NCBI RefSeq assembly: GCF_010614725.1
Contig: NZ_JAAEHL010000002.1
Coordinates: 248,001-312,000 of the forward strand
Direction of reading: 5' to 3'
From: Flavobacterium ajazii
Lineage (GTDB): Bacteria > Bacteroidota > Bacteroidia > Flavobacteriales > Flavobacteriaceae
DNA length: 64,000 bases
A model generated the notes under the pieces. It saw only the letters and a program-made list of their open reading frames with translations. It made no database searches and had not been told where the DNA came from. Shown one piece after another: positions 1 to 7,839 of the stretch (within the stretch, counting starts at the first letter, position 1; each line of letters begins with the position of its first letter). A program made the position numbers and the translations under genes.

Positions 1-126
1 TTGAAAGAATCAGATCCTTCAATCAAAAAAGGGCAGCTTTTAACCCTCAAAGGAAGAGTTGTTGGATATGATGACTTAATGGGAGAATTAAAACTGGACC
101 AGTGTTCGGTAGTAAATAATAATTAA
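1..126 (+). CDS. C-terminal end of an OB-fold (tRNA_anti-like) protein, partial
   Basis: Frame 1 is open from the window edge to a TAA at 124-126, giving the last 41 residues of a protein that starts outside the window. The visible part (KKGQLLTLKGRVVGY, then ELKLDQCSVV) resembles the end of the Bacteroidota tRNA_anti-like OB-fold family, in which a GQ-V-L-KG strand and a final LDQCS strand are typical. The function of that family is not established; members are usually small exported proteins. The stop lies 10 nt before the next start codon, so it is probably the upstream member of the operon running to 3265. Assignment rests on a short fragment. Confidence 0.6.
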   Translation: MKESDPSIKKGQLLTLKGRVVGYDDLMGELKLDQCSVVNNN

Positions 127-136
127 TAAAATTAAA

Positions 137-1000
137 ATGAGGAATTTTTCAGGCTTTTTGCTTCTGTTTTTTTTAACAACAAATCTATTTGCCCAGGATG
201 ATTTACTGAATCAGCTGGATAGTGTAACATCTAACGAAAAACAAATTGAAATAGCGGCTTTCAAAGGATTGCAGATTGCCAATATGCAGTCTACAAAATT
301 GCCTGCGAAGGGAGAATGGTACATGCTTGTTTCACATCGTTTTGGCGACTTGTCCGAAGGATTTAATAATTTCTTTGGTTTAGATAATGCCCTGACAAAG
401 TTTGGTGGAATCTATGGTGTAACAAACTGGCTGAGCTTTGGAGCTACGAGACATACATACAATAAAATTTACGAAATAACAGCCAAATATAAAATGGCCA
501 ATCAGGAAGTAAACGGATTTCCTGTGACTATTGTAGGATACAATACGATGGATATCAACAGTGCACTGGAAAAAGAGCTGTATCCTAATATAAGATTTTC
601 GGATCGTTTAGCTTTTACAACTCAATTATTAGTTTCCAGAAAAGTCAGCGAAAAATTTTCTGTCGAATTAGGTCTTATTAATGTCTATAAAAACTTATAT
701 GACGATGCGCTTGAACAGCAAAACGTATTTTCGGCAGCAGGAGGATTACGCTACAAGATTGCCAAAAGAATGAGTGTTAACCTTGAATATGCTGCCCGCG
801 TGATTACAGAAGAAAAGGATATAGACCCGTATCATAATCCGCTTACGGTTGGTTTGGATATTGAAACCGGCGGACATGTTTTTCAGCTTGTATTCTCCAA
901 CAGCCAGCCTATGAATGATGTCGCAGTATTTTCGACCGCTTCAGGGGACTGGACGAAAGGGAAAATTTATTTTGGTTTTAACATGTACAGATCCTTTTAA
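137..1000 (+). CDS. DUF5777 family outer-membrane beta-barrel protein
   Basis: 287 residues with a signal peptide (about residues 1-19, ending LFAQ) followed by alternating hydrophobic beta-strand-like segments and a terminal Phe (MYRSF), as expected for an outer-membrane barrel. The pattern SHRFGDLSEGFNNFFGLDNA near residue 66 is typical of DUF5777. The molecular role of this family is unknown; in Bacteroidota it is often found beside YceI and cytochrome genes, which is also the case here. It sits 10 nt after the OB-fold protein and 37 nt before the cytochrome c lipoprotein, all on the same strand. I infer an outer-membrane component of an exported redox or small-molecule system. Confidence 0.8.
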   Translation: MRNFSGFLLLFFLTTNLFAQDDLLNQLDSVTSNEKQIEIAAFKGLQIANMQSTKLPAKGEWYMLVSHRFGDLSEGFNNFFGLDNALTKFGGIYGVTNWLSFGATRHTYNKIYEITAKYKMANQEVNGFPVTIVGYNTMDINSALEKELYPNIRFSDRLAFTTQLLVSRKVSEKFSVELGLINVYKNLYDDALEQQNVFSAAGGLRYKIAKRMSVNLEYAARVITEEKDIDPYHNPLTVGLDIETGGHVFQLVFSNSQPMNDVAVFSTASGDWTKGKIYFGFNMYRSF

Positions 1001-1037
1001 AAGTAACAACTATTTAAGTTAAAAATATTATTTCCAT

Positions 1038-1388
1038 ATGAAAAAGAGTATCCTAATCATACTATTTACCTCTGCAGCATTTTTAGTTTCCTGCACGCCC
1101 CGAACTTACGAAGATATTTCAGAAACAGAGATAAGTACTTCGCCAACTTATACGGCGAATATTGAAGCTGTAATACAAGCAAATTGTGTAGGCTGTCATT
1201 CTGATGGCGGACAATTTCCAACTTTAGAAACCTACGATCAGGTAAAAGATGCTACTCAAAATGGCGATTTAATCTGCAGAATTGATCAGACCCAGTCTTG
1301 CGGGAGCGTAATGCCCAGATCGGGACCTATGCCAAGAGCAACTATTGACATGATTATACTTTGGCAAAAAGAAGGATATAAAAATTAA
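1038..1388 (+). CDS. monohaem c-type cytochrome lipoprotein
   Basis: 116 residues. An N-terminal hydrophobic segment ends in a lipobox (FLVSC), so Cys19 is the probable lipidated residue. A single haem c motif CVGCH occupies residues 50-54, and Met92 or Met98 (VMPRSGPMPR) could be the distal axial ligand. The fold between resembles the small cytochrome domains found in Bacteroidota lipoproteins. It would be anchored to the outer membrane and shuttle electrons in the periplasm or at the surface; the partner is not known. It lies between the DUF5777 barrel and YceI, 11 nt before the latter, within one apparent operon. Confidence 0.85.
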   Translation: MKKSILIILFTSAAFLVSCTPRTYEDISETEISTSPTYTANIEAVIQANCVGCHSDGGQFPTLETYDQVKDATQNGDLICRIDQTQSCGSVMPRSGPMPRATIDMIILWQKEGYKN

Positions 1389-1399
1389 AACTATATAAC

Positions 1400-1945
1400 A
1401 TGAAAGAAATACTAATATCAACATTGTTTTTATTGGCGGGAAACGCAGTTTTTTCGCAAAAGATGATTACCCGAACCGGGGAAGTAAAATTTGAGGCTTC
1501 AATGCCGGCTTTTGAAGAAGTAGCAGCAACAAACAAAACAACTTCGTGTATTCTTGAAAAAAGCACAGGTGACTTTGTGGCTTTGACGCTAATAAAATCA
1601 TTCAAATTTAAAGCTCCTCTGATGGAAGAACATTTTAATGAAAATTATATGGAATCTTCTCAATTTCCAAAAGCCACTTTTAAAGGGAAGATTTTAAATT
1701 TTGATGACAAAAAATTATCAGCTTCAAAAACAGCTTATGATCTGGAAGGCGATTTAACCATACACGGTGTTACCAAAAAGATAAAAACTAAGGTTAATCT
1801 TGCCTTAAGCGGAGCAAAAATTTTGGCATCAAGTGCAATTTCAATAAAACCTCAGGATTACAAAATTGAAATACCAGGTTTAGTAAAAGGAAAAATTGCA
1901 GAAAATGTAAAAGTCGCTATGAATTTTGTTCTTGAAGCTAATTAA
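1400..1945 (+). CDS. YceI family exported protein
   Basis: 181 residues with a signal peptide (cleavage after about residue 19, VFSQ). The body has the YceI lipocalin-like pattern: TRTGEVKFEAS at the start, SFKFKAPLMEEHFNENYMES in the middle (the characteristic F-n-nYmes motif) and GDLTIHGVTKKI later, then SISIKPQDYKIEIP near the end. Family members bind long isoprenoid chains such as polyprenols or quinones in a hydrophobic barrel. The location next to a haem c lipoprotein is compatible with binding a quinone-type cofactor, but that is inference. 17 nt separate it from the ankyrin gene downstream. Confidence 0.88.
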   Translation: MKEILISTLFLLAGNAVFSQKMITRTGEVKFEASMPAFEEVAATNKTTSCILEKSTGDFVALTLIKSFKFKAPLMEEHFNENYMESSQFPKATFKGKILNFDDKKLSASKTAYDLEGDLTIHGVTKKIKTKVNLALSGAKILASSAISIKPQDYKIEIPGLVKGKIAENVKVAMNFVLEAN

Positions 1946-1962
1946 TCAAAAACTATTTTATC

Positions 1963-2478
1963 ATGAAAAAATTAGTATTGCTTATAATGTTGTTATGTCT
2001 TTCTATTGCTGAAGCACAAAACAAAACGGTTTTTGATATTGCCCGAACCGGAACTTTAGCAGAGATCCAGACCCTGAACAAATCAAATCCGGATTTAATC
2101 AATTCCCTTAACGAAAGCAAAACAAGCCCTTTAATTCTGGCCTGTTACAGAGGAAATACTGAAGTCGCCAAATTCCTGATAGAAAATGTAAAAGACATTA
2201 ACTACAACTCTGATATGGGAACAGCGCTGATGGCTGCAACTTATAAAAATCACCCACAATTAGTAAAATTATTACTCGAAAAAAAAGCCAATCCAAATGC
2301 AACTGATGTCAACGGAACCACAGCATTGTCACTTGCAGTACAATTCAAAAATGATCAGTTAGTCAAATTGCTTTTAGACTATAAAGCAGATAAAACCATT
2401 AAAGATAACAAAGGAAAAACAGCATTTGAATATGCTGTTTTTTCTCAAAATGAAGAAATAATCAACCTTTTAAAATAA
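1963..2478 (+). CDS. exported ankyrin-repeat protein
   Basis: 171 residues beginning with a signal peptide (about residues 1-19, ending AEAQ). The rest is made of about four ankyrin repeats; clear repeat cores are TSPLILACYRGNTEVAKFLI, then GTALMAATYKNHPQLVKLLL, GTTALSLAVQFKNDQLVKLL and KTAFEYAVFSQNEEIINLL. Ankyrin repeats mediate protein-protein contacts. In other bacteria periplasmic ankyrin proteins accompany redox enzymes such as catalase or cytochromes; here it lies between YceI and the DOMON protein. Seven nt separate it from the downstream gene, so co-transcription is very likely. Confidence 0.87.
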   Translation: MKKLVLLIMLLCLSIAEAQNKTVFDIARTGTLAEIQTLNKSNPDLINSLNESKTSPLILACYRGNTEVAKFLIENVKDINYNSDMGTALMAATYKNHPQLVKLLLEKKANPNATDVNGTTALSLAVQFKNDQLVKLLLDYKADKTIKDNKGKTAFEYAVFSQNEEIINLLK

Positions 2479-2485
2479 GTCCATT

Positions 2486-3265
2486 ATGAAAAAAATTACT
2501 CTTTTAGGAATTTTAGCAATTAGCTTAAGCGGTTTCGCTCAGCAAAAAACTACCGGAGATGTTACTTTGTCAACCAATATGACTGCCAATTTAACCTTAA
2601 ACAACACTACATCGAAAGCTACTCTCAAACTTACCGGGCCTTCAGACAGATGGTTTGCATTACAGTTCGGTGCTTTTGGATCGGGTGGCGGAATGGAATC
2701 CGGAGAAGATTTAGTATATACCAATGCTACAACATTAATTGATGCAAGTCAAAACGGAGTCGGTTCTGCACCAGGTACAGATGCCTCACAAAGCTGGACA
2801 GTAACCTCAAATACGGTAACTTCGGGAATCAGGACTATAATAGCAGAACGAAATCTATCAACTGGAGATGCCAACGATTATACCTTTAATTATGCTAACA
2901 CTACTATTGATTTTGCCTGGGCCAGAAGAAGTAATGCAGGTTATGCAATGAACAACCACGGAGGTGCAAATCGCGGATATAATGTTAGTGTACCTCTATC
3001 TGCTTCATTAGGAGTAGATGATTTTGGTCTGAAAGCTTCTGCTATTTATCCGAATCCATCAAACGGAAATTTTACTATTGAAACCAAAACAGGTTTAGAT
3101 CAAATAAATGTATACTCTTTGATTGGAACATTGATTGAAACTATTGAAGTAAAAGATAAATCTAACACTGTTGAAGTATCCCTGAAAAATTTGCAATCAG
3201 GAGTTTACCTAATAGAATTACAAAACGATCAGGAAAAAACCTGGAAAAAAATAGTTCTTAATTAA
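2486..3265 (+). CDS. DOMON-like protein with T9SS sorting domain (candidate surface b-type cytochrome)
   Basis: 259 residues: signal peptide (1-19, ends GFAQ), a DOMON-like domain (about 22-170) and a C-terminal type IX secretion sorting domain (about 183-259; YPNPSNGNFTIE at its start and GVYLIELQ before the end). DOMON features include WFALQFGAFG followed by GMESGEDLVY (Met70), and NNHGGANRG (His158). In cytochrome-type DOMON domains a Met and a His at these places ligate haem b, so haem binding is plausible but not shown; the domain can also bind sugars. The protein should be exported by T9SS to the cell surface. It is the last gene of the 137-3265 cassette. Assignment of the sorting domain is firm, of DOMON moderate. 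Confidence 0.78.
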   Translation: MKKITLLGILAISLSGFAQQKTTGDVTLSTNMTANLTLNNTTSKATLKLTGPSDRWFALQFGAFGSGGGMESGEDLVYTNATTLIDASQNGVGSAPGTDASQSWTVTSNTVTSGIRTIIAERNLSTGDANDYTFNYANTTIDFAWARRSNAGYAMNNHGGANRGYNVSVPLSASLGVDDFGLKASAIYPNPSNGNFTIETKTGLDQINVYSLIGTLIETIEVKDKSNTVEVSLKNLQSGVYLIELQNDQEKTWKKIVLN

Positions 3266-5119: not shown

Positions 5120-5743
5120 TTAGAATGTTGTAGTACTATTTGCCTGGTATGCGAAATTGAAAGTATAGTATCTTGCTGCATCTGTAGCTGCAGGTGTAGC
5201 TGGTGCACCTTGGTAGTAGCTTAAAAATTCTACTTTTGCATATTTACCATCATGGGTTTTTATAACAAATACTTTTCCAGCTTTTGCAGAAATAATATGT
5301 GTAATAGAATTATAATCATACCATGTATTATCTCCTGATGTAGGAAACGCATAGGTCGAAGCTCCATCCTGAGCAAATGTAGCTACAGCCGGAAATGTAG
5401 TAACCCCTGCAAATGTTCCTGACACGATACTTACAGCTCCTGTTCCTGTTCTTTCTGGCTCGTCAGTGATTCCAATTTTAGCTCCCCCGTTAACAATAAT
5501 AGCAGTACCACGAAAAGCGATATCCCATTTATCTGTAGTAACAATTTTATTTTCAGCAAAACTGAATTTTGTAAATTCTCCACTTGCTGCTGTCCCTCGA
5601 TCACCTCCTGTTTGTGGGGCATAAAGATCTGAAACTTTTGTTGTTACTACTTCCGGAATCGTATTATCCTTATCATCACTGCTGCATGATGCTGTAAAAA
5701 TAAATAATGCTAAAAGCGAAAGTTTTAAGAATTTTGTTTTCAT
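5120..5743 (-). CDS. hmuY: HmuY-like haem-binding lipoprotein
   Basis: 207 residues. The signal segment ends in a lipobox (FTASC, Cys20). The body shows the HmuY family pattern: KWDIAFRGTAIIVNGG near residue 73, GDNTWYDYN near 137 and GKVFVIKTHDGKYAKVEFLS near 155, followed by YYTFNFAYQ at the C-terminus. HmuY proteins sit on the outer membrane, capture haem and hand it to the TonB receptor HmuR. The gene lies 29 nt downstream of an HmuR-like receptor on the same strand and ends at a strong terminator, so the pair forms one transcript. Some members bind ligands other than haem; the axial residues cannot be assigned with confidence from sequence alone. Confidence 0.85.
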   Translation of the reverse strand: MKTKFLKLSLLALFIFTASCSSDDKDNTIPEVVTTKVSDLYAPQTGGDRGTAASGEFTKFSFAENKIVTTDKWDIAFRGTAIIVNGGAKIGITDEPERTGTGAVSIVSGTFAGVTTFPAVATFAQDGASTYAFPTSGDNTWYDYNSITHIISAKAGKVFVIKTHDGKYAKVEFLSYYQGAPATPAATDAARYYTFNFAYQANSTTTF

Positions 5744-5772
5744 TGTGTAAAAAGTGTTTAAATAAATATTAA

Positions 5773-7839
5773 TTAAAAGTTATATTGAATTCGTGCAAAA
5801 AATTGTCTTCCGGCAAGGCTCGGAATCTGTCCCGGATCTGTATAATCAAATAAATTATTAGCCCCAGCCTGAAGCATTAATTTATCAGCTACAGTTTTTG
5901 AAATTGATAAATTGGTTAAAAAGTAGTCATTTACAAATTTGTCGTATTTATCCAGAATGCTGTTTCCATTGGTATCAAACATTCCGTACTTACTTTTATA
6001 AAAAACACGTAAGTTGATATCGGTTTTTATATTCGGAATCGAGTACAAAACTTTAATATTAGCTGTATGTTTTGATCTGTTATAAATTCCAAAATAATCT
6101 GATTTATTAATTTTAAAAGTTTGTAGTTCTGAATTACGGACATATTGGTAATCTTCAAAATTGTCAACAACATCTTTATTTTTAGCAATTAAATATTGGT
6201 ATCCTAACGATAAAGAGAACTCTTTGGTAAAACTATACGTTGAATTATACTCAATACCGTAGGTGAAAATTTTATCGAAATTAGAATAACTAAAAATATT
6301 CTGACCGTTTGTTTTTTGAGCCACAACCTGAGTATCAATCAAATTGCTAATTGAATTATAAAAAGCATTGATATCCATTCTTAGCTTATTTCTTTTATAA
6401 TAAGTTCCAAAATTGAAATTAACAGAACTTTCTGCCTCTAATGGTTTGTCAAAACTAATTCCTGCTACTCTGGATAAAAGCTGTCCCTGCTCTTCAAACT
6501 GATCCAGACGGGCTTCGGCAACATTATACCCTAAAACGGTGTAACCAACAGAAGGATTAGTAAAATCGAAATACAACTGACGGAAATCCGGTGCTTTATA
6601 GCCATACCCAACCGAAGATTTTAAAGATAAATTATTATTAATTTTATAATTTACAGCTAGCTTAGGACTTAACTGCGATGCATAAACACTATGATTATCA
6701 TACCTGAATCCGGCCAGAATATTCCACTTTTCAGTAGGATTGTAATCATATTGTACAAAAACATACTGCGAATTAAATTTCACATTATCTTTAAAATAGG
6801 TCCTGTCCAGACTTTCATAATTTAACCCTACTCCGGCTGTTAACTTGTCCTTATTTATTGAAACAGTAGTTCTGACCTCGGGTCTGAAAAGCCATTGGTC
6901 GTAATATGTATCTTCATAACGAACATCGTTCTGGTCATTTAAAAACGAATCATTTTTATAATTGGTCGCATAAAATTCATATTCAGAATATACTTTAGGA
7001 GTCCATTTGTGTTCTAATTTGATTTGCGAATTCCATTCGTTTTCCTTTGCTTCGCCACTATATGTTTCAGATCCAATCACAGCTGCATTATCTGCTTTTT
7101 GATTAAAAAAACGATTACTTACGATTAGTTTCAGATTTTCAGAAAAATCATAATATAATTTTGGCTGAATTGTAGTATTATAGTATCCTTCTACATTTTT
7201 CAGCACTGAACTTTCGTTCAAATCAAATCCATCTGTTGAATAATAGTTAGCAAACAAATTAGCTGCAAATTTTTTCTTCTTCCAAAGCAAATTAGCATTG
7301 GCATCACTGGTATTAAATGTTGCATATCTATAAGAAAGACCACCTGCCAACATATCTTTCGTAGGTCTTTTTGTAATTACATTAATAACTCCACCCATTG
7401 CTTCAGAACCATATAAAGCTGATGATGCACCTTTTACAATTTCAATTCTCTCAATATTTCCAACAGAAATCCTGGACAAATCCAAAACTCCTGAACTTCT
7501 TCCTACAAGTGGCAAACCATCAATCAAAATCATAGTATAGGCTGCATCCAGACCCTGCATCTGAATCCCCTCAAAACCACTTTCATCGGGAACCAGAATA
7601 ATTCCCGTTTGTTCATTTAGGATTTCGTTTAATCTCGTAACACCTGTTTTTATAATTGCCTCAGATGTAATAATTGTCATGGGCAGTGGTAATGATGAAA
7701 GTACTCTTTCGGTTCTTGTCGCCGTAGTAACCATTACTTCCGGCAATTGATTTGCAGCTGTACTATCCTTTGGCTTTTCCTGAGCAACAGAAATTTGACA
7801 AAAAACAAACAGAGCAAAAAGGGTAATTTTAATTTTCAT
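5773..7839 (-). CDS. hmuR: HmuR-like TonB-dependent receptor
   Basis: 688 residues: signal peptide (about 1-19, ending SVAQ), then directly a TonB box region and plug domain (PEVMVTTATRTERVLSSLP; LIDGLPLVGR; IERIEIVKGASSALYGSEAM; GGVINVITKRP, residues about 33-160) and a 22-strand type barrel ending in a terminal Phe (FFARIQYNF). It lacks the N-terminal carboxypeptidase-like domain of SusC proteins, as expected for iron, haem or cobalamin receptors. Transport needs TonB-ExbBD, which is not in this window. The downstream HmuY-like lipoprotein supports haem uptake. A -7 box lies upstream, close to the promoter of the divergently transcribed DUF6607 gene. Confidence 0.87.
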   Translation of the reverse strand: MKIKITLFALFVFCQISVAQEKPKDSTAANQLPEVMVTTATRTERVLSSLPLPMTIITSEAIIKTGVTRLNEILNEQTGIILVPDESGFEGIQMQGLDAAYTMILIDGLPLVGRSSGVLDLSRISVGNIERIEIVKGASSALYGSEAMGGVINVITKRPTKDMLAGGLSYRYATFNTSDANANLLWKKKKFAANLFANYYSTDGFDLNESSVLKNVEGYYNTTIQPKLYYDFSENLKLIVSNRFFNQKADNAAVIGSETYSGEAKENEWNSQIKLEHKWTPKVYSEYEFYATNYKNDSFLNDQNDVRYEDTYYDQWLFRPEVRTTVSINKDKLTAGVGLNYESLDRTYFKDNVKFNSQYVFVQYDYNPTEKWNILAGFRYDNHSVYASQLSPKLAVNYKINNNLSLKSSVGYGYKAPDFRQLYFDFTNPSVGYTVLGYNVAEARLDQFEEQGQLLSRVAGISFDKPLEAESSVNFNFGTYYKRNKLRMDINAFYNSISNLIDTQVVAQKTNGQNIFSYSNFDKIFTYGIEYNSTYSFTKEFSLSLGYQYLIAKNKDVVDNFEDYQYVRNSELQTFKINKSDYFGIYNRSKHTANIKVLYSIPNIKTDINLRVFYKSKYGMFDTNGNSILDKYDKFVNDYFLTNLSISKTVADKLMLQAGANNLFDYTDPGQIPSLAGRQFFARIQYNF

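What the first reader, a model, noticed from the sequence alone, without database searches (positions are those of the whole stretch)
1..3265. Exported cytochrome / YceI / DUF5777 / ankyrin / DOMON cassette, a candidate surface redox system
Six same-strand genes with short gaps: OB-fold end, DUF5777 barrel, monohaem c lipoprotein (CVGCH), YceI (isoprenoid-binding family), exported ankyrin protein and a DOMON-like protein with a T9SS sorting domain. The DOMON domain keeps a Met (70) and a His (158) at positions that ligate haem b in cytochrome-type DOMON domains. I infer that quinone-like carrier, c-haem and b-haem proteins work together in the envelope and on the cell surface. I know no described pathway with this gene set.
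Basis: partly seen in the sequence, partly recalled or inferred. Interest (0 to 1): 0.65.

Follow-up and report, generated by a model that had tools for sequence, protein, structure and literature searches.

The report
Bacteroidota envelope redox operon with barrel
A Flavobacterium operon that pairs an outer-membrane barrel with a small c-type cytochrome, a quinone-binding-type protein and a secreted haem-domain protein belongs to a gene set kept across the Bacteroidota, and it looks like an undescribed way of moving electrons through the cell envelope.

Summary
In detail: six same-strand genes, gaps 7-37 bp. In 102 DUF5777 loci across Bacteroidota, a c-haem lipoprotein lies within 3.5 kb in 86 and YceI in 84, far above the density further out. 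Where the cytochrome is missing, a Rieske or cupredoxin protein usually takes its place; where a 4Fe-4S/NrfD pair is present, YceI is absent. In five genera cytochrome and barrel are one polypeptide. Ankyrin-DOMON is a separable pair that joins this core in many Flavobacteriaceae. The DOMON Met and His are conserved (39/40 and 40/40 rows) and the model matches haem-b DOMON cytochromes. An ECF sigma/FecR/TonB-receptor trio and a conserved promoter-like element lie upstream. I read it as an envelope electron-transfer module: quinone-type carrier, c-haem, outer-membrane barrel, secreted b-haem. Haem content, electron flow, direction and sigma control are inferred, not shown. Nearest known kinds are Cyc2 cytochrome-porins and YceI-cytochrome pairs; each lacks a tested match in a defining feature. 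New variant of a known kind.

The parts
1..126 (+). 3' end of the OB-fold gene (PF12869 tRNA_anti-like, N-terminal membrane anchor by eye); the gene starts 264 bases before the window
   Evidence: OB in 22 of 102 DUF5777 loci
137..1000 (+). DUF5777 outer-membrane beta-barrel, 12 strands in the model
   Evidence: PF19089 6e-80; model pLDDT 77; KdgM Z 18.1, rmsd 2.0 over 166
1038..1388 (+). c-type cytochrome lipoprotein with one haem motif; lipobox Cys at 1092-1094
   Evidence: all 101 cytochrome ORFs near DUF5777 carry CX2-4CH
1185..1199 (+). CVGCH haem-attachment codons
   Evidence: sequence
1400..1945 (+). YceI-family exported lipocalin (isoprenoid/quinone-binding family)
   Evidence: PF04264 4.2e-16; YceI near DUF5777 in 84 of 102 loci
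1963..2478 (+). exported ankyrin-repeat protein
   Evidence: Ank_2 1.3e-26; next to DOMON in 34 of 35 and 25 of 26 loci
2486..3265 (+). DOMON domain plus T9SS type A sorting domain (tail 3044-3256)
   Evidence: DOMON fold, dopamine beta-hydroxylase Z 14.5, cellobiose dehydrogenase cytochrome Z 11.7
2693..2695 (+). Met70 codon, putative haem-b ligand
   Evidence: 39 of 40 rows (one row repeats a genome)
2957..2959 (+). His158 codon, putative haem-b ligand
   Evidence: 40 of 40 rows (one row repeats a genome)

Best explanation
This is an envelope electron-transfer module. Inferred order: a prenyl-quinone-type cofactor carried by YceI in the periplasm exchanges electrons with the lipid-anchored c-haem lipoprotein; the cytochrome works at the periplasmic mouth of the 12-stranded DUF5777 barrel, which lets a small redox partner reach it or lets it pass electrons outward; in this lineage a T9SS-secreted, probably b-haem DOMON protein, made with an exported ankyrin partner, is the surface or extracellular end. 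In Flavobacterium an ECF sigma/FecR/TonB-receptor trio directly upstream probably switches the operon on. Shown: gene content, phylum-wide linkage, carrier substitution, natural cytochrome-barrel fusion, predicted folds, ligand conservation, a conserved promoter-like element. Inferred: haem loading, quinone binding, direction, substrate, sigma control. I favour outward flow (reduction or quenching at the surface) with low confidence on direction.
For: Phylum-wide linkage of c-haem lipoprotein (86 of 102), YceI (84 of 102) and DUF5777 against 0.25 and 0.51 hits per 100 kb further out. One-electron carriers replace one another: 9 of 12 loci with Rieske or cupredoxin lack the cytochrome, against 4 of the other 87; YceI is absent in all 6 loci with the 4Fe-4S protein (5 with NrfD in range), present in 83 of the other 93; Pfam checks of examples. 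Fused cytochrome-DUF5777 in five genera. T9SS-tailed cupredoxin beside the same core in L088 and L093. DOMON fold and Met/His conservation. DOMON and DUF5777 co-occur in genomes: 22 of 27 against 124 of 272. Conserved element upstream of OB.
Against: No haem, quinone or electron transfer is measured. Ankyrin-DOMON lies away from the core in 12 of 26 loci, and 5 of 27 DOMON genomes have no DUF5777 hit. Four of 99 loci have no recognised carrier and 16 of 99 no YceI. One DOMON locus (L258) lacks the ankyrin gene. A single c-haem cannot by itself bridge a membrane, and a 12-stranded barrel is narrow (general knowledge). DOMON is below Pfam's cut-off. L015 has the sigma trio but not the element.
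Confidence: 0.5

Rival explanations
1. Antioxidant system for outer-membrane lipids: a YceI-bound prenyl-quinol quenches lipid peroxyl radicals, and the cytochrome (or Rieske/cupredoxin) re-reduces it, as proposed for BcnA and the cytochrome b561 LcoA in Burkholderia. The barrel only anchors or opens the site at the outer membrane.
For: YceI-cytochrome pairing and the published BcnA-LcoA proposal (PMC9113575, passages); same core genes.
Against: No cytochrome b561 in the window cassette; NrfD/4Fe-4S loci have no YceI; a secreted DOMON or cupredoxin protein and a barrel fused to the cytochrome are not needed for it.
Confidence: 0.2
2. Electron supply to secreted oxidative enzymes, as the cytochrome domains of cellobiose dehydrogenase or Cbp2D do for LPMOs: the DOMON protein or cupredoxin is the extracellular donor.
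For: The DOMON model aligns with cellobiose and pyranose dehydrogenase haem-b domains; Cbp2D joins a YceI-like domain and c-haem domains (PMC8981238, passages).
Against: No LPMO or similar enzyme was recognised next to the window operon; the core occurs widely without DOMON (97 of 102 loci).
Confidence: 0.1
3. Haem capture or traffic: the DOMON protein binds haem as a haemophore next to the HmuY/TonB haem-uptake genes.
For: HmuY (3.1e-13) and a TonB receptor lie 1.9-4.6 kb downstream on the other strand.
Against: HmuY was found within the 10 kb flanks of only 2 of 35 relatives (L010, L012). Replacement of the cytochrome by Rieske or cupredoxin proteins, which carry no haem, argues for electron carriage.
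Confidence: 0.08

Closest known systems
Cyc2 fused cytochrome-porin of iron oxidisers (PMC8406198, passages read)
   Same: One c-haem domain with an outer-membrane barrel; fused N-terminally in five relatives.
BcnA-LcoA: YceI lipocalin with cytochrome b561 (PMC9113575, passages read)
   Same: YceI lipocalin paired with a cytochrome.
   Different: The partner is a c-type lipoprotein, Rieske or cupredoxin protein, not cytochrome b561; plus a barrel and secreted proteins.
Cbp2D of Cellvibrio japonicus (PMC8981238, passages read)
   Same: YceI-like domain and c-haem domains together in an exported system.
   Different: One polypeptide with a carbohydrate-binding module and two c-haem domains; no barrel mentioned in the passages.
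Haem-b DOMON domains of cellobiose and pyranose dehydrogenases and ethylbenzene dehydrogenase gamma
   Same: Fold (Z 11.7, 10.9, 10.5); Met and His conserved.
   Different: Here a small stand-alone T9SS cargo, not the domain or subunit of a dehydrogenase.
Multihaem porin-cytochrome conduits (MtrAB type, recalled)
   Same: Outer-membrane barrel with a c-type cytochrome.
   Different: One haem motif in 91 of 103 cytochrome ORFs, not many.

Membership tests
Cyc2 cytochrome-porin | single c-type haem motif | tested here: met
   CVGCH in the window cytochrome; fused relatives have CX4CH where Cyc2 has CXXCH
Cyc2 cytochrome-porin | cytochrome fused N-terminally to the porin | tested here: not met
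   separate genes in the window; fused only in five distant relatives
Cyc2 cytochrome-porin | 16-stranded barrel | tested here: not met
   12 strands in the DUF5777 model
Cyc2 cytochrome-porin | match to Cyc2 sequence profiles; iron oxidation | not tested
   no Cyc2 profile or sequence was at hand
BcnA-LcoA | YceI lipocalin | tested here: met
   PF04264 4.2e-16
BcnA-LcoA | cytochrome b561 partner | tested here: not met
   none of the window cassette proteins matched it
b-haem DOMON cytochrome | DOMON fold | tested here: met
   Pfam DOMON 28.5 bits is below the cut-off of 32.7
b-haem DOMON cytochrome | Met and His ligands | tested here: met
   conserved in 39 and 40 of 40 rows; the ligand overlay itself could not be read
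b-haem DOMON cytochrome | bound haem b | not testable with these tools
   needs spectra
Multihaem porin-cytochrome conduit (MtrAB type, recalled) | multihaem cytochrome inside the barrel | tested here: not met
   one motif in the window protein; one in 91 of 103 cytochrome ORFs, two in 11, three in 1
T9SS type A cargo | C-terminal sorting domain over the curated cut-off | tested here: met
   PF18962 58.9 bits against 27; TIGR04183 41.3 against 23
T9SS type A cargo | secretion by T9SS | not testable with these tools
   needs a T9SS mutant
FecI-FecR-FecA type surface signalling (upstream trio) | ECF sigma, FecR and TonB receptor side by side | tested here: met
   Sigma70 r2/r4, FecR and Plug over cut-off
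FecI-FecR-FecA type surface signalling (upstream trio) | N-terminal STN signalling domain on the receptor | tested here: inconclusive
   STN only 15.6 bits against 28.4

The most novel reading that the evidence does not exclude
Bacteroidota carry their own class of cytochrome-porin: a 12-stranded barrel (DUF5777) with an exchangeable one-electron partner (c-haem, Rieske or cupredoxin; sometimes fused as one chain), served by a soluble YceI quinone carrier or by an NrfD complex, moving electrons across the outer membrane, and in Flavobacteriaceae ending in a T9SS-secreted b-haem or blue-copper protein, in Flavobacterium under a surface-sensing ECF sigma. It would be a widespread extracellular electron route different in build from Cyc2 and Mtr.
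Probability: 0.35. Interest if true: 0.85.

Novelty: new variant of a known kind. Interest (0 to 1): 0.62.

Why it matters
No paper in the held library contains 'DUF5777' or 'PF19089', so the barrel has no described function that I could find. Linking it to exchangeable electron carriers gives a testable role to a family found in 82 of 198 sampled Bacteroidota genomes. If it moves electrons across the outer membrane, a phylum mostly studied for polysaccharide digestion would have a widespread, unrecognised route for contact with metals, oxidants or other cells, and the secreted DOMON protein would be a T9SS cargo with a redox task.

Tried and rejected
Cyc2 membership was rejected on strand number and gene arrangement; sequence relation was not tested. 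Haem uptake was set aside because HmuY recurs in 2 of 35 relatives and the carrier can be a non-haem protein. PDB sequence searches: DOMON domain profile, three hits up to E 10 that look like chance; full DOMON protein, mostly T9SS tails; DUF5777, none up to E 1. The hairpin after 3265 has its T-run on the minus strand, so it is a terminator candidate for the convergent gene, not for this operon. Sigma-70-type scan: 19 sites against 14.2 expected. Promoter word TANNTTTG: 22 against 26 expected. The second genome match of the promoter-like pattern lies inside an ORF that reads by eye as a recombinase; the short word GGTAGGGTAA occurs twice in the genome against 10 for its reversed control, so shortness alone proves nothing. 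Acidic residues after the lipid Cys (45 of 101 cytochromes) had no control and are not used. The globin-like lipoprotein L007 10905-11495 matched no Pfam family up to E 5; that label rests on my eye. A Flavobacteriaceae-only cytochrome profile did not match the fused proteins significantly (best E 0.1); the phylum-wide one did. Bizionia: adjacent Rieske and cytochrome c genes (by locus number) among targets of an iron regulator (PMC9478572, passages); Riemerella: a YceI gene in an iron-limitation table (PMC5429918, passages); I could not show that either is this operon. Paper searches (listings and starts of abstracts) showed none on this gene set among the rows listed.
Full report
WHAT IS THERE. 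The window begins inside an operon of a Flavobacterium-type genome (nearest named relative of the DOMON gene: F. hydrophilum, 85% identity). The six same-strand genes are real and at the stated places. The first is an OB-fold protein (PF12869, 4.8e-10) that starts 264 bases before the window. Then come DUF5777 (6e-80), a c-haem lipoprotein with CVGCH, YceI (4.2e-16), an exported ankyrin protein (1.3e-26) and a DOMON-like protein with a T9SS tail (tail 6.1e-16; DOMON 1.9e-6, under Pfam's cut-off). The gaps are 10, 37, 11, 17 and 7 bp. The same genome has a second core cluster (YceI, YceI, cytochrome, divergent from OB, DUF5777) without ankyrin or DOMON.

UPSTREAM. Directly upstream, same strand, lie an ECF sigma factor, a FecR protein and a TonB-dependent receptor; the trio is also upstream in 8 of the 35 relatives (L008-L013, L015, L030). 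Between receptor and OB gene, TTTGGTAGGGTAA, 12 bases, then CTGTT is identical in its fixed letters in the 7 loci aligned, while much of the sequence around it drifts. In the own genome the stricter pattern occurs once more, inside an ORF. I read it as the promoter of the neighbouring ECF sigma; this is inference.

A CONSERVED CASSETTE. One search gave 44 loci; nine matched by the T9SS tail alone and were left out, leaving 35 (L008-L042). Of these, 20 have all six genes in the same order and strand, 7 have all six rearranged, 6 have only ankyrin + DOMON, and 2 lie on short contigs. Ankyrin is next to DOMON in 34 of 35; the exception is at a contig end. In a second, unnamed sample a DOMON match was found in 27 of 299 genomes of the family, 24 of 236 genera. 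Of the 27 DOMON genomes 22 have DUF5777, against 124 of the other 272 (taking both calls to have drawn the same 299 genomes; Fisher 4e-4). The five without it are G365, G391, G420, G534 and G553; G391 is the one whose DOMON gene also lacks ankyrin, and the other four are 73-92% complete. So the six genes are two units that keep meeting: a core, and an ankyrin-DOMON pair.

A PHYLUM-WIDE CORE. DUF5777 occurs in 82 of 198 Bacteroidota genomes sampled evenly, 51 of 102 genera, and in 0 of 14 control genomes. I fetched 102 of its 109 places (dropped: one fragment at a contig end and six hits of at most 31.3 bits) and scored neighbours within 3.5 kb with profiles that were refined on these same loci. 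Cytochrome 86, YceI 84, OB 22, Rieske 8, 4Fe-4S protein 6, NrfD 5, ankyrin 5, DOMON 5, cupredoxin 4. Density near against further out, per 100 kb: cytochrome 14.3 against 0.25, YceI 12.9 against 0.51. The nearest cytochrome or YceI is on the DUF5777 strand in 160 of 170 cases, and the gap to the nearest same-strand one is at most 100 bp in 90 of 95 loci (starts are the first possible codons). All 101 cytochrome ORFs carry CX2-4CH and 91 a lipobox-like site; 97 carry a later Met-Pro-type stretch that could hold the second ligand. Of 103 cytochrome ORFs 91 have one haem motif.

EXCHANGEABLE CARRIERS. Three loci cut by contig ends were dropped, leaving 99. A Rieske or cupredoxin protein is present in 12; 9 of these lack the cytochrome, against 4 of the other 87 (Fisher 8e-8). 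The 4Fe-4S protein is present in 6 (5 with NrfD in range), none with YceI; 83 of the other 93 have YceI (7e-6). Pfam confirmed the domain in 5 of 8 Rieske proteins, in the two T9SS-tailed cupredoxins, and in one NrfD/4Fe-4S pair; the cupredoxins of L156 and L167 rest on my profile and on reading the sequence. Relatedness makes the p values descriptive, but the Rieske loci come from five families of the phylum (kinship columns). Four loci have no recognised carrier (L111, L135, L154, L172). What a haem protein, an iron-sulphur protein and a blue-copper protein share is one-electron carriage; this is my main reason to read the core as redox, and it speaks against haem uptake or haem catalysis. 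In L088 and L093 a cupredoxin with a T9SS tail lies between OB and DUF5777: a secreted electron carrier of another kind beside the same core.

FUSION. In the order around G030, five proteins from five genera hold an N-terminal CX4CH domain and DUF5777 in one open frame (L207-L211). The N-terminal parts match a profile of the separate cytochromes, which held none of these proteins, at 6e-10 to 1e-6 (database size set to 100000), though not a profile made from Flavobacteriaceae alone. Three further long frames (G213, G228, G199) were not read. Among the 102 census loci only L108, the same gene as L211, is fused.

STRUCTURE. The DUF5777 model (mean pLDDT 77) has 12 strands and aligns with KdgM (Z 18.1, rmsd 2.0 over 166) and FapF (Z 18.7, rmsd 4.0 over 214). 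The DOMON model (mean pLDDT 79) aligns with the DOMON domain of dopamine beta-hydroxylase (Z 14.5, rmsd 2.7 over 144) and with haem-b domains of cellobiose dehydrogenase (11.7), pyranose dehydrogenase (10.9) and ethylbenzene dehydrogenase (10.5). Met70 is kept in 39 of 40 rows (in the 40th a Met lies close by in a gapped stretch) and His158 in 40 of 40 (L149 repeats L013). One cellobiose dehydrogenase entry is titled an M65H mutant, in line with Met65 as a ligand there (recalled). The overlay of ligands could not be read from the tool.

HOW IT MOST LIKELY WORKS. YceI proteins have been crystallised with isoprenoids including ubiquinone-8, and a Neisseria one was purified with it (PMC9113575, passages); Bacteroidota use menaquinone (recalled). 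The best reading is a chain: quinone-type cofactor on YceI, c-haem lipoprotein, barrel, and in this lineage a secreted b-haem protein. Absence of YceI where NrfD and a 4Fe-4S protein are present, a quinol-handling membrane pair (recalled), fits YceI as the quinone end. The fused form fits the cytochrome at the periplasmic mouth of the barrel, as in Cyc2, where one haem domain and a porin carry out iron oxidation (PMC8406198, passages). Direction, substrate and cofactors remain inferred.

KNOWN OR NEW. It works like, but by the tests here is not a member of, Cyc2 (12 against 16 strands, usually unfused) or BcnA-LcoA (no cytochrome b561). No paper in the held library contains DUF5777 or PF19089, and the rows listed by other searches showed none on this gene set; most subscription journals and preprints are not held. 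I rate it a new variant of a known kind, with a real chance that it is a separate class of cytochrome-porin.

Noticed in passing
L007 7385-10320 (G000 contig C11): Second core cluster in the same genome: YceI, YceI and cytochrome divergent from OB and DUF5777, followed by an unassigned protein and a lipoprotein that looks globin-like by eye; no ankyrin or DOMON.
   Followed up: partly
window 5120-7839, minus strand: HmuY-like lipoprotein and TonB-dependent receptor, a likely haem-uptake pair, next to but not conserved with the operon.
   Followed up: partly
L109, L112, L113, L162, L163, L165: DUF5777 with a CX2-4CH lipoprotein beside a 4Fe-4S protein and NrfD (NrfD out of range in L112's count): an unassigned quinol-type complex linked to an outer-membrane barrel.
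   Followed up: partly
L034, L035, L039, L040, L041, L042: Longer DOMON proteins (513-718 aa) with Ig-like repeats (by eye) between the DOMON domain and the sorting tail.
   Followed up: no
L085 8891-10498: Protein with six Lipoprotein_15 repeats next to the cytochrome-OB-YceI-DUF5777 cluster; a profile hit of the same kind lies near L130.
   Followed up: no
L014 (record CALPUN020000085.1): A contig labelled Bifidobacterium breve MAG carries a Flavobacterium-like ankyrin-DOMON pair (70% identity), probably a binning error in the public record.
   Followed up: no
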